The position numbers and the translations under genes were made by a program. This document shows, one piece after another, positions 23,127-26,875 of a stretch of DNA of 64,000 nucleotides. Numbering within the stretch: the first letter of the stretch is position 1; each line of letters begins with the position of its first letter. Source of the stretch: Streptomyces roseifaciens (lineage in GTDB: Bacteria; Actinomycetota; Actinomycetes; Streptomycetales; Streptomycetaceae); contig NZ_LNBE01000004.1 of assembly GCF_001445655.1 (NCBI RefSeq), positions 2,615,218 to 2,679,217 of the forward strand, read 5' to 3'. Under the pieces are notes generated by a model. It worked only from the letters and a program-made list of their open reading frames with translations. It did not search any database and had not been told where the DNA came from.

Positions 23127-23266
23127 GCCGGGCCCGGTGCCGGCGGGCCCCTGTGGGGGACACGTCCGGTCCGGAGTCGGTTGAATCCGCCCTCAGCCGT
23201 TAGCCTGACGCAACGCATTCATCACACGTTTTCATCGCACGTTCGGATGGGGGACGGTCGTTACGC

Positions 23267-24115
23267 ATGGCCAGGGAATTCCAGCGCGGCCACAAGGCCA
23301 AGATCAGTGACCTGACGGCGGGGACCGATCTGTACGTGGGAGTGCAGATCGCGGGCCCCGGCCTGACCTTCGACATCAGCTGTTTCGGCCTCGACGCCGC
23401 GGAGCGGCTCTCGGACGACCGGTATTTCGTCTTCTTCAACCAGCCCAAGTCGCCCGAGGGCGCCATTCAGCAGCTCGGGGCGCAGGCCGGTGACACGGAA
23501 TCCTTCCGCGTCACCCTCGACCAGATCCCCGCGCACATCCAGCGGCTCTCTTTCACGGCCACCCTCGACGGCGCGGGCCAGATGTCGCAGATCGCACCCG
23601 GCTATCTCCGTATCGTCGCCGGCGGCCAGGAAGTCGCGCGCTACTCCTTCACCGGGGCCGAATTCAGCACCGAACGCGCGGTGATGCTCGGCGACATCTA
23701 CCTGAAGGACGTCTGGCGCTTCGCCGCTGTCGGGCAGGGCTTCGACGGCGGACTGGAGGCACTGCTCCAGCACTTCGGCGGCGAGGTGCTCGAAGAGGAG
23801 CCCCAGGCGCCGGCCCCGGCCGCGCCCGCGCCCGCCGCAGCGCCCGCCTTCGCCCCTCCGCAGCAGGCGGGCCCGCCCCCGGCCGCGCCCGCGCCCGCCG
23901 CAGCGCCCGCCTTCGCCCCTCCGCAGCAGGCGGGCCCGCCTGCTGCGGAGGGGCGAAGGCGGGCGCTGCGGCGGGCGCGGGCGCGGCCGGGGCCGGCGCC
24001 TGGGGCGGCTGACCGTACGGCTGCTGGCCGGGCTGGCCCGGGAAGGGCTGGCCGTGCTGGGGCGCGGAGTGCGGCTGGCCGGGGACGCCGGGCGGACCGG
24101 GCGGCGGCGGGGTGA
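23267..24115 (+). CDS. TerD-domain protein, C-terminal part broken (first half of a split TerD-AIM24 gene)
   Basis: Residues 1-190 are a TerD domain (tellurium/stress-response, Ca2+-binding in studied homologues): LTAGTDLYVGVQIAGPG, FDISCFGLD, and later SFTGAEFSTERAVMLGDIYLK. After residue about 225 the frame runs into an inverted copy of its own Pro/Gln linker, giving a meaningless Arg/Ala-rich tail and a TGA at 24113. Removing or re-inverting the segment between the two palindrome centres (23935-24147, 213 bp, 71 codons) restores one open frame into the AIM24 half. So the gene is a TerD-linker-AIM24 fusion interrupted by a rearrangement or a mis-assembly. Start ATG 23267 opens the TerD domain. 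Confidence 0.8.
   Translation: MAREFQRGHKAKISDLTAGTDLYVGVQIAGPGLTFDISCFGLDAAERLSDDRYFVFFNQPKSPEGAIQQLGAQAGDTESFRVTLDQIPAHIQRLSFTATLDGAGQMSQIAPGYLRIVAGGQEVARYSFTGAEFSTERAVMLGDIYLKDVWRFAAVGQGFDGGLEALLQHFGGEVLEEEPQAPAPAAPAPAAAPAFAPPQQAGPPPAAPAPAAAPAFAPPQQAGPPAAEGRRRALRRARARPGPAPGAADRTAAGRAGPGRAGRAGARSAAGRGRRADRAAAG
23877..23992. repeat. Spacerless inverted repeat, 58-bp arms, in the TerD-AIM24 linker
   Basis: Left arm 23877-23934 and right arm 23935-23992 are reverse complements meeting at GGGCCC with no spacer. The left arm is itself the second copy of a tandem direct repeat (first copy about 23803-23873). The right arm is the start of the inverted segment. Confidence 0.85.
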
Positions 24116-24300
24116 ACTGGCCGCCGGTGGAGGCCCCCGGGCTGTTGAAGAAGCCCGGGGGCCTCCACCGGCGGCCAGTTCACCCCGCCGCCGCCCGGTC
24201 CGCCCGGCGTCCCCGGCCAGCCGCACTCCGCGCCCCAGCACGGCCAGCCCTTCCCGGGCCAGCCCGGCCAGCAGCCGTACGGTCAGCCGCCCCAGGCGCC
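23995..24300. repeat. 306-bp near-perfect palindrome (149-bp arms, 8-nt spacer)
   Basis: Bases 23995-24143 are the exact reverse complement of 24152-24300, separated by GTTGAAGA. The right arm is the normal coding orientation of the Pro/Gly/Gln linker; the left arm is its inverted duplicate. It introduces TGA codons at 24113 and 24146 into the TerD-AIM24 frame. Palindromes of this length are normally unstable in bacteria, so a local assembly error must be considered. Confidence 0.9.
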
Positions 24301-24409
24301 CGCTCCGGCCCCGGCGCCCGCCGCCCCCCAGGCCCAGACGCCGCCGCCCCACCAGGGCTTCCCGCCCCCGCCCGGCAGCACCCCGCCGCCGGCACCGCCC
24401 GCCGGGCAG

Positions 24410-25402
24410 GTGCACGCCGCGCAGACCCTGGCCGCGCCGATCGCCCCTCCGGGCTTCTTCAACAGCCCGGGGGCCTCCACCGGCGGCCAGTTCACCCCGC
24501 CGCCGCCCGGTCCGCCCGGCGTCCCCGGCCAGCCGGGCCCGTACGGCCAGCAGCAGCCCACCCCGTACGGTCAGCCGCAGCAGCAGCCCTACGGCCAGCC
24601 CGGCCAGCAGCCGTACGGTCAGCCGCCCCAGGCGCCCCAGCAGAACGCGCCCTACCCCGGCCAGCCGCACTCCGCGCCCCAGCACGGCCAGCCCTTCCCG
24701 GGCCAGCCCGGCCAGCAGCCCTACGGCCAGCCGGCCGCGGCGGCCGGCGTCCAGGCGGCGCTGCAGAAGTACCGGGAGGCCCCCACCGGCCAGCGCTGGA
24801 CCCAGCAGAACCCCAAGCTCGTCCGCGTCGACCTCGGCGTCGACGGCCAGCCCGTGCTCGCCCGCCAGGGCAGCATGGTGCTGTACCAGGGCAAGGTCGA
24901 CTTCGGCTACAAGGGCGCCGGCTTCGCCGGCCGCATCGTCGGCAACGCCACCGGCCAGGAGCTGCAGCTGATGCGCTGCACCGGCCGCGGGCAGGTCTTC
25001 CTCGCGGAGAACTCCGCCCACGTGCACCCCATCGAGCTCCAGGGCGACGCCATCTGCGTCTCCGCGGAGTCGGTGCTCGCCTTCGACGAGTCGCTGCAGC
25101 ACGAGGTCCGCCGGATCGAGGGCCACGGCATCCCCGGCGGCGCCCTGTTCACCATGCAGTTCCAGGGCCACGGCACCGTCGTCGTCAAGACCCACGGCAT
25201 CCCCGTCGTGCTGCCGGTCACCCCGTCGACCTACGCGGACAGCAACGCCGTCATCGCCTGGTCCGCGGGCGCCCAGGTGATCATCTCCAGCCAGGTGCGC
25301 CTGCGCCGCAGCTCCTACCCGGGGCACAGCGGAGAAGCCGTGAACCTCCAATTCCGGGGCGCTCCCGGCAATTTCGTCGTCGTCCAGCCCTACGAGGTCT
25401 GA
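24410..25402 (+). CDS. AIM24-family protein with Pro/Gln-rich N-terminus (second half of a split TerD-AIM24 gene)
   Basis: A 330-residue reading frame; the same frame is open back to 24149, and no ribosome site precedes GTG 24410, so this is the 3' half of the fusion gene. The first 110 residues are repetitive linker (PYGQP and PGQPG units). Residues about 130-330 form an AIM24 beta-sandwich: VRVDLGVDGQPVLARQGSMV, ELQLMRCTGRGQVFLAENSA, and terminal FRGAPGNFVVVQPYEV. AIM24 proteins are named for a mitochondrial protein; the bacterial role is unknown. The other two operon genes encode AIM24 domains alone. Confidence 0.75.
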   Translation: MHAAQTLAAPIAPPGFFNSPGASTGGQFTPPPPGPPGVPGQPGPYGQQQPTPYGQPQQQPYGQPGQQPYGQPPQAPQQNAPYPGQPHSAPQHGQPFPGQPGQQPYGQPAAAAGVQAALQKYREAPTGQRWTQQNPKLVRVDLGVDGQPVLARQGSMVLYQGKVDFGYKGAGFAGRIVGNATGQELQLMRCTGRGQVFLAENSAHVHPIELQGDAICVSAESVLAFDESLQHEVRRIEGHGIPGGALFTMQFQGHGTVVVKTHGIPVVLPVTPSTYADSNAVIAWSAGAQVIISSQVRLRRSSYPGHSGEAVNLQFRGAPGNFVVVQPYEV

Positions 25403-25418
25403 GGGACCAGCGAAGACC

Positions 25419-26102
25419 ATGAACCAGACACCGATCCAGGGCTACGCCCCCACCCCCGTCACCACCCGCATGGAGAACCACGGCAGCAGCATGCTGAAGG
25501 TCGCCATGCAGACCGGCCAGGACCTCTTCGCCCGCACCGGCTCGATGGTCGCCTACGAGGGCTACGTCCAGTACGACCCGAACCCGCCCGCGGTCCGCCA
25601 GATGGCCTCCCAGTGGCTCACCGGCGAGGGCGTGCCCCTCATGCGCTGCCACGGCGACGGCCTGCTCTACCTCGCCGACTACGGGGCCGACGTGGTCTGC
25701 CTGCAGCTCAACGGCGACTCCCTCTCCGTCAACGGCACCAACGTGCTCGCCTTCGACGCCCACCTCCAGTGGGGCGTGGAGCGCGTGAAGGGCATGGCGA
25801 AGTTCGCCGGACAGGGCCTGTTCAACGTCGGCATCAGCGGCACCGGCTGGGTCGCCCTGACCTCCCGCGGCACCCCCATCGTCGTGGACTGCGGGCGCGG
25901 CGACGACGAGACCTACGTCGACCCCGACGCGCTCGTCGCCTGGTCCAGCAACCTCCGGATGAAGGGCAAGCGCAGCTTCAAGGCCTCCTCGCTGATCGGC
26001 CGGGGCAGCGGCGAGGCCTACCAACTGGGCTTCTCCGGAGAGGGCTTCGTGGTCGTACAGCCCAGCGAGGACAGCACCGACCGGCTCCGGGCCCGGGGCT
26101 GA
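25419..26102 (+). CDS. AIM24-family protein
   Basis: A 227-residue AIM24 domain protein without the TerD module: MLKVAMQTGQDLFARTGSMV, GVPLMRCHGDGLLYLADYGA, and C-terminal YQLGFSGEGFVVVQPSE. It lacks signal peptide and membrane segments, so it is cytosolic by sequence. It lies 16 bp after the AIM24 half of the fusion gene and 17 bp before the third member, so the three form one operon. Function is unknown; co-occurrence with TerD suggests a membrane- or metal-stress role. Confidence 0.85.
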   Translation: MNQTPIQGYAPTPVTTRMENHGSSMLKVAMQTGQDLFARTGSMVAYEGYVQYDPNPPAVRQMASQWLTGEGVPLMRCHGDGLLYLADYGADVVCLQLNGDSLSVNGTNVLAFDAHLQWGVERVKGMAKFAGQGLFNVGISGTGWVALTSRGTPIVVDCGRGDDETYVDPDALVAWSSNLRMKGKRSFKASSLIGRGSGEAYQLGFSGEGFVVVQPSEDSTDRLRARG

Positions 26103-26119
26103 GGGGGAACGAGGACATC

Positions 26120-26875
26120 ATGCAGAGCCCGCTTTTCGGCTTCACCGAGGCCCAGACGCAGGACCGCTACGCCCTGCAGAACCCGCAGATGCTGCGCGTC
26201 TCCCTCACCGGCCACGACGACGTGCTCGCCCGCAAGGGCTCGATGGTCGCCTACCAGGGCCTGATCGAGTTCGACGGCGAGTACCAGACCCGCGGCCAGC
26301 AGACCTCCCGCGCCCACACGGGCGAGGGCCTGGACCTGATGCGCTGCTCGGGCCAGGGCACGGTCTACTTCGCCAACCTGGCCCAGCACGTCCACGTGGT
26401 CGACGTCGACCGCGACGGGCTGACCGTGGACGGCGCCTACGTCCTCGCCCTGGACTCCACGCTGCACTGGGAGGCCATCGCCGTCGACAGCCAGTACGGC
26501 ATCTCCGGCACCGGCGCCTACCAGCTCAACATCAGCGGCCAGGGCAAGGTCGCGCTGATGACCTCCGGCGAGCCCCTGATGCTCCAGGTCACGCCCGACC
26601 GGGTCGTCAGCGCCGACGCCGACGCCGTGATCGCCTGGTCGACGTCCCTGCGCGTGCAGATGCAGGCCCAGACGTCGTCCTCGGGCGTGTGGCGACGGCG
26701 CGGCAGCACGGGGGAGGGCTGGGAGCTGAGCTTCGCCGGCCACGGCTACGCCCTCGTCCAGCCCAGCGAGCTCCTGCCGCCCCAGGGCGCCGAGATCGGC
26801 CAGGGCCTCATGGCGCAGTACGGCGTGGGCCAGCAGGGTGCGCACGGCCGCAACCAGGGCAACATCTGGTCCTGA
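26120..26875 (+). CDS. AIM24-family protein
   Basis: Third AIM24 domain of the operon, 251 residues from ATG 26120 with GAGG six bases upstream. Family signatures are repeated: MLRVSLTGHDDVLARKGSMV, GLDLMRCSGQGTVYFANLAQ and WELSFAGHGYALVQPSE. The C-terminus adds a Gly/Gln-rich tail. The three paralogous domains have diverged well beyond recent duplication, which suggests distinct subunits of one assembly. A strong bidirectional terminator follows. Confidence 0.85.
   Translation: MQSPLFGFTEAQTQDRYALQNPQMLRVSLTGHDDVLARKGSMVAYQGLIEFDGEYQTRGQQTSRAHTGEGLDLMRCSGQGTVYFANLAQHVHVVDVDRDGLTVDGAYVLALDSTLHWEAIAVDSQYGISGTGAYQLNISGQGKVALMTSGEPLMLQVTPDRVVSADADAVIAWSTSLRVQMQAQTSSSGVWRRRGSTGEGWELSFAGHGYALVQPSELLPPQGAEIGQGLMAQYGVGQQGAHGRNQGNIWS

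What the first reader, a model, noticed from the sequence alone, without database searches (positions are those of the whole stretch)
23935..24300. 306-bp palindrome splits a TerD-AIM24 fusion gene; re-inverting 213 bp restores the frame
Arms 23995-24143 and 24152-24300 are exact reverse complements, and a second spacerless palindrome is centred at 23934/23935. The segment between the two centres (213 bp, 71 codons) is an inverted copy of the gene's own linker repeats. Flipping it in place gives one open frame of 711 residues; deleting it gives 640. As given, the gene makes TerD only. This is either a real inverted duplication (possibly an on/off configuration) or a repeat mis-oriented by assembly.
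Basis: seen in the sequence. Interest (0 to 1): 0.8.

Follow-up and report, generated by a model that had tools for sequence, protein, structure and literature searches.

The report
Assembly fold-back inside a repeat-rich gene
The striking palindrome in this bacterial gene is really in the published letters, but it is almost certainly a sequencing or assembly error: the same draft genome carries similar fold-backs elsewhere, one of them splitting its only found copy of an essential replication gene, while sampled relatives have none.

Summary
Arms 23995-24143 and 24152-24300 are exact (149 nt, 8-nt loop), a second centre lies at 23934/23935, and the 711 and 640 residue sums hold. The gene is a TerD / proline-rich linker / AIM24 fusion, in a Streptomyces judging by named relatives.

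It is most likely an artefact, and not simply a mis-oriented repeat. In the closest relative found, the DNA runs on from window 23911 to 24287, so about 375 bp is extra. All of it is exact pieces of the local linker on both strands, joined at shared words of 6-20 nt.

Same assembly: 6 of 60 sampled 20-kb stretches hold perfect inverted pairs of 40 nt or more; four relatives: 0 of 60. One splits the only dnaG found, and that insert matches another scaffold. The linker is hard to assemble: 19 of 80 relatives' contigs end in or beside it. The segment's flanks share no inverted homology, so no recombinational flip is evident.

Reads were not available. A real multi-step template switch is not excluded (about 6%).

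The parts
23267..24115 (+). TerD-domain reading frame (282 codons) that runs into the inverted material and stops
   Evidence: PF02342 E 1.3e-36
23810..23935 (+). 63-nt proline/alanine linker repeat in two direct copies (98% alike)
   Evidence: family D6
23877..23992 (.). palindrome 1, spacerless, centre 23934/23935, 58-nt perfect arms
23912..24286 (.). extra DNA not present in the closest relative; 375 of 375 nt are exact pieces of the neighbouring linker on both strands
23935..24006 (-). exact inverted copy of 23800-23871 (72 nt)
24007..24158 (-). inverted mosaic of 24624-24593, 24700-24655 and 24522-24449
23995..24143 (-). left arm of palindrome 2
24144..24151 (.). 8-nt loop; centre 2
24152..24300 (+). 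right arm of palindrome 2; from 24159 a direct mosaic of 24471-24535, 24668-24720 and 24613-24637
24290..24770 (+). native linker, collinear with the closest relative and including the single native GFFN..PGAS module near 24452
24410..25402 (+). AIM24-domain part of the fusion, in frame to its stop
   Evidence: PF01987 E 4.5e-26

Best explanation
The palindrome is an artefact of sequencing or assembly, not a feature of the chromosome. The linker of this TerD-AIM24 gene is 83.5% G+C and full of short repeats and hairpins. The likely course is that chimeric fold-back reads, or an extension step at a gap, turned round at a short natural palindrome on each side (GGCGGGCCCGCC on the left; the CCGGGCT..AGCCCGG hairpin on the right). 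The two turned-back ends were then joined through a 12-nt shared word. The result is X.X'-Y'.Y in place of the plain linker, with both sides' linker pieces copied and scrambled. Shown: the structure, the exact local origin of all the extra letters, its absence from the relatives looked at, and similar structures elsewhere in this assembly including inside dnaG. Inferred: which step (library chimera, gap filling or contig joining) made it.
For: (1) Closest relative found (G060, 90% over the AIM24 half) is collinear through window 23200-23911 and 24287-25402 with nothing between, and carries the GFFN module once in a 585-residue frame, as S. roseoverticillatus does in 593. (2) All 355 nt of 23935-24289, or 375 of 375 nt of 23912-24286, are exact copies of neighbouring linker pieces, with junction words of 6, 12, 20, 13, 7, 13 and 20 nt. 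(3) In 60 stretches (1.2 Mb of 8.64 Mb) of the same assembly, 6 hold 12 perfect inverted pairs of 40-257 nt; 60 stretches (1.2 Mb) from four relatives hold none, longest 38 nt. (4) One of the six lies inside the only dnaG match in G000, between the catalytic part and the C-terminal DnaB-binding domain; the frame there is 520 codons against 634-698 in five relatives. DnaG is essential in bacteria (established knowledge). (5) The dnaG insert holds pieces 94% and 98% identical to scaffold C3; the L170 insert holds one 99% identical to C3. (6) In L166 and L170 the relative is also collinear across the insert, with only 22 and 33 nt between. (7) 19 of 80 relatives' contigs end within 361 nt of the match start in this linker; 0 of 80 end elsewhere in the 3 kb held on either side; 2 of 80 have runs of N in it. 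(8) Hairpin-forming chimeric reads in library preparation are described in PMC8674242 (passages seen).
Against: No reads could be examined. The L181 palindrome (54 nt) is not an insertion relative to G060, and the right half of L151 could not be placed there, so not all six are shown to be errors. L157 looks more like an inverted middle than an added piece. The other inserts are not wholly local mosaics: flank copies explain 132 of 229 nt (L166), 131 of 600 (L172), 810 of 1155 (L170) and 232 of 353 (L157). No inverted pair was seen beside three N runs of this assembly. The C3 matches are 94-99%, not 100%. The assembly is rated 100% complete with 0.5% contamination.
Confidence: 0.92

Rival explanations
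1. A real, very recent inverted duplication made in vivo by replication template switching: the nascent strand turned back at one short palindrome, jumped at a 12-nt word, turned back again at a hairpin and went on, leaving a disrupted gene.
For: Both centres sit at natural short palindromes and every other junction has 12-20 nt of shared sequence. Foldback and template-switch events of this shape are described in yeast and humans (PMC10766186, passages seen). Real coding palindromes of up to 284 bp are reported in nematomorph mitochondria (PMC6649704, abstract start and passages seen).
Against: It would need several independent events in one strain, one of them splitting the only dnaG found, while four relatives show none in 1.2 Mb. 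Long palindromes are said to be unstable in organisms into which they were introduced (PMC10766186).
Confidence: 0.06
2. An invertible on/off switch: the 213-nt segment flips to make TerD alone or the TerD-AIM24 fusion.
For: The 213-nt segment keeps the frame when taken on the other strand.
Against: No inverted repeats flank the segment: 8 nt shared between the flanks, against 8-11 nt in 20 shuffles. The larger inverted pairs (I1-I4) do not end at its two centres. No inverted copy was seen in the linker of any of 138 loci of relatives, some fetched twice and some cut by a contig end. I did not search the window for a recombinase gene.
Confidence: 0.01
3. Only the orientation is wrong: the chromosome carries the same 213 nt as a direct repeat of the linker.
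For: The flipped piece reads as linker, and linker repeats do occur here.
Against: The two relatives read in full have one GFFN module, and the closest is collinear from 23911 to 24287. A flip alone would leave a linker mosaic found in neither.
Confidence: 0.04

Closest known systems
Hairpin-induced chimeric reads (microhomology-induced chimeric reads, PMC8674242)
   Same: A strand folds back at nearby palindromic words and is copied, so forward and reverse pieces of one locus are fused; a second type joins different regions through shared words.
   Different: Described for reads from formalin-fixed tumour samples; here the fusion stands in a contig, and the step that made it is not known.
Misassembly in repetitive actinobacterial drafts (review PMC4849082)
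   Same: G+C-rich, repeat-rich Streptomyces genes misassembled in draft genomes.
   Different: The passages seen concern PKS/NRPS modules and terminal repeats, not fold-back palindromes.
Inverted triplication with palindromic junctions (ODIRA model, PMC10766186; tandem inversion duplications recalled)
   Same: Strand switching at short inverted repeats leaves forward-inverted-forward copies with palindromic junctions.
   Different: Those are real, usually far larger rearrangements; the letters here are a scrambled mosaic, and similar fold-backs recur across one assembly, including in dnaG.
Streptomyces TerD-AIM24 fusion gene
   Same: Same order TerD, proline-rich linker, AIM24; 46 of 55 relatives with a strong match have an open frame of 532 codons or more.
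   Different: Here the frame is interrupted by the fold-back insert.

Membership tests
Assembly or library fold-back artefact | Extra sequence is an exact copy of neighbouring DNA, part of it inverted, with no divergence | tested here: met
   355 of 355 nt and 375 of 375 nt explained by exact local pieces
Assembly or library fold-back artefact | Absent from relatives at the same place | tested here: met
   G060 collinear; no linker inverted copy in 138 loci examined, some duplicated, some cut by contig ends
Assembly or library fold-back artefact | Recurs elsewhere in the same assembly, not in other assemblies | tested here: met
   6 of 60 stretches against 0 of 60 in four relatives
Assembly or library fold-back artefact | Breaks genes that cannot be broken | tested here: met
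   dnaG split, one match in G000; essentiality is established knowledge, not tested here
Assembly or library fold-back artefact | Not supported by reads from single molecules | not testable with these tools
   no reads available
Invertible DNA switch (phase variation) | Inverted repeats at the two ends of the invertible segment | tested here: not met
   8 nt shared between flanks; shuffles 8-11 nt
Invertible DNA switch (phase variation) | A recombinase acting on the site | not tested
   no search for a recombinase gene was made
Replication template-switch / tandem inversion duplication | Turn-back points at short natural palindromes and junctions at microhomology | tested here: met
   also expected of an in-vitro chimera, so it does not separate the two
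Replication template-switch / tandem inversion duplication | Present in the living chromosome | not testable with these tools
   no reads available; dnaG case argues against
TerD-AIM24 fusion | TerD domain, linker and AIM24 domain in one gene | tested here: inconclusive
   both domains found and spaced as in relatives, but the frame as given is interrupted

The most novel reading that the evidence does not exclude
The palindromes are real: this strain makes or tolerates many fresh fold-back inversions through repeated template switching at hairpins, including in a repeat-rich stress-gene linker, so that coding linkers are rebuilt on both strands within one lineage.
Probability: 0.06. Interest if true: 0.6.

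Novelty: not a real feature. Interest (0 to 1): 0.1.

Why it matters
It matters as a warning. A well-rated assembly (100% complete, 0.5% contaminated) holds clean, exact palindromes in coding genes that look like switches. The cheap tests used here (comparison with the nearest relative, the same scan elsewhere in the assembly, and whether an essential gene is hit) separate such errors from biology without reads. If the palindromes were real, they would be an unusual burst of inverted duplication in one bacterium.

Tried and rejected
On/off inversion: rejected because the segment's flanks share no inverted homology above shuffles. Mis-oriented direct repeat: rejected because the relatives read in full have the module once and the closest is collinear across the place. 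Recurrent fold-backs in the same linker of other species: first seemed to show two (L077, L107), but reading them showed runs of N, which my script had paired with themselves; these are gaps or masked stretches, not palindromes. A link between palindromes and N runs in this assembly: three N runs had no long inverted pair beside them, so gap filling as the exact step is not shown; N may also mark withheld letters. Other frame breaks in the same gene (L023, L028) show no palindrome of 16 nt or more and were not pursued. Papers: listings; passages read. I found no paper in those searches describing this locus or this assembly.

Full report
What was claimed. The letters bear this out: arms 23995-24143 and 24152-24300 are exact (149 nt, 8-nt loop), centre 1 at 23934/23935 has 58-nt perfect arms, the segment is 213 nt, and the three pieces read apart add up to 711 or 640 residues. 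The next longest perfect palindrome in the window has 17-nt arms. As written the TerD frame ends at 24115.

What gene it is. The upstream frame has a TerD domain (PF02342) and the downstream frame an AIM24 domain (PF01987). Among 61 genomes searched in the genus, 55 besides the window's own have a strong match (E 3.3e-102 or better); in 46 of these 55 the open frame is 532 codons or more and in 9 it is 261-397. At least five of those nine lie at a contig end by the contig lengths and coordinates.

What the extra DNA is. In the closest relative found (G060) window 23200-23911 and 24287-25402 are collinear and meet, with a 9-nt overlap, so about 375 bp of the window has no counterpart there. G060 and S. 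roseoverticillatus carry the GFFN..PGAS module once, in frames of 585 and 593 residues. The extra DNA is wholly made of exact local pieces: 23935-24006 is the inverse of 23800-23871, 24007-24158 an inverse mosaic of 24624-24593, 24700-24655 and 24522-24449, and 24159-24301 the direct mosaic of 24471-24535, 24668-24720 and 24613-24637. Junction words are 6, 12, 20, 13, 7, 13 and 20 nt. The two turn-back points are a natural 12-bp palindrome of the left repeat and a hairpin of the native GFFN module; this is read from the sequence.

Is it a switch? A segment that flips by recombination needs inverted repeats at its ends. The 235 nt to the left and 303 nt to the right share at most 8 nt in inverted orientation, against 8-11 nt in 20 shuffles. 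No inverted copy was seen in the linker of the other 138 loci examined; some of these are the same genome fetched twice and some are cut by a contig end.

The control that decides. I sampled 60 stretches of 20 kb from the same assembly (five were placed on weak secondary matches, the rest spaced along the scaffolds). Six of 60 hold 12 perfect inverted pairs with arms of 40-257 nt: L151, L157, L166, L170, L172 and L181. Sixty stretches from four relatives (G012 20, G060 20, G064 10, G058 10) hold none; the longest is 38 nt. Four of the seven loci (window, L166, L170, L172) show two turn-backs close together, and L151, L157 and L181 one (a count made by eye).

dnaG. In L172 (C4:503210-505894) the palindrome sits between a frame with the zinc, catalytic and DnaB_bind domains of DNA primase and a frame with the C-terminal DnaG_DnaB_bind domain, with a stop codon between. 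The N-terminal part has one match in the whole assembly, with a frame of 520 codons; five relatives have 634-698. In G060 the two parts are adjacent. The 600-nt insert holds a 130-nt inverted flank copy and pieces 94% and 98% identical to two places on scaffold C3. Primase is essential in bacteria (established knowledge), so this palindrome at least is very unlikely to be real.

Other loci. L166 and L170 are collinear in G060 with 22 and 33 nt in place of 229 and 1155; part of the L170 insert is 99% identical to scaffold C3. Not everything fits: L181 is not an insertion relative to G060, L151 could not be placed on its right side and involves an interspersed repeat, L157 looks like an inverted middle, and the other inserts are explained by their own flanks only in part (132 of 229, 131 of 600, 810 of 1155, 232 of 353).

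Why here. The stretch 23800-24770 is 83.5% G+C against 72.8% for the window. In 19 of the 80 best loci the contig ends within 361 nt upstream of the match, that is in or beside this linker, and none of the 80 ends elsewhere in the 3 kb on either side; two more have runs of N in it. The list is the best 80 of 153, and contigs under 3 kb are not held, which may bias the count.

Verdict. The palindrome is most likely a fold-back artefact of sequencing or assembly (0.92). Which step made it is not known: hairpin-induced chimeric reads are a described cause (PMC8674242, passages), and misassembly of repeats in actinobacterial drafts is noted in a review (PMC4849082, passages). A real template-switch event is kept at 0.06 because no reads could be looked at.

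Noticed in passing
L172:3210-5894 (G000:C4:503210-505894): The only dnaG match in this assembly is split by a palindromic fold-back insert that includes pieces matching scaffold C3.
   Followed up: yes
L151:11487-11986, L157:13902-14490, L166:18910-19306, L170:249-2001, L181:13479-13586: Further long perfect inverted pairs in the same assembly, in or beside genes such as phosphoglucomutase/phosphomannomutase, an ATP_bind_1 protein and a protein kinase.
   Followed up: partly
L151:11617-11755: An intergenic element of about 120-140 nt with a hairpin; more than ten similar places in relative G060, so an interspersed repeat family.
   Followed up: no
L023 (G020), L028 (G012), and G041: The TerD-AIM24 frame is also short in these genomes although the match is not at the end of its contig (L023, L028; contig length not seen for G041); no palindrome of 16 nt or more in L023 or L028.
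   Followed up: partly
L106:1-56: A Streptomyces africanus contig that stops in this linker begins with a 21-nt inverted pair, as if folded back at the contig end.
   Followed up: no
window 25419-26102 and the frame ending at 26875: A second AIM24 gene (PF01987) and a further frame of similar sequence follow the fusion gene directly; the latter was not scanned.
   Followed up: no
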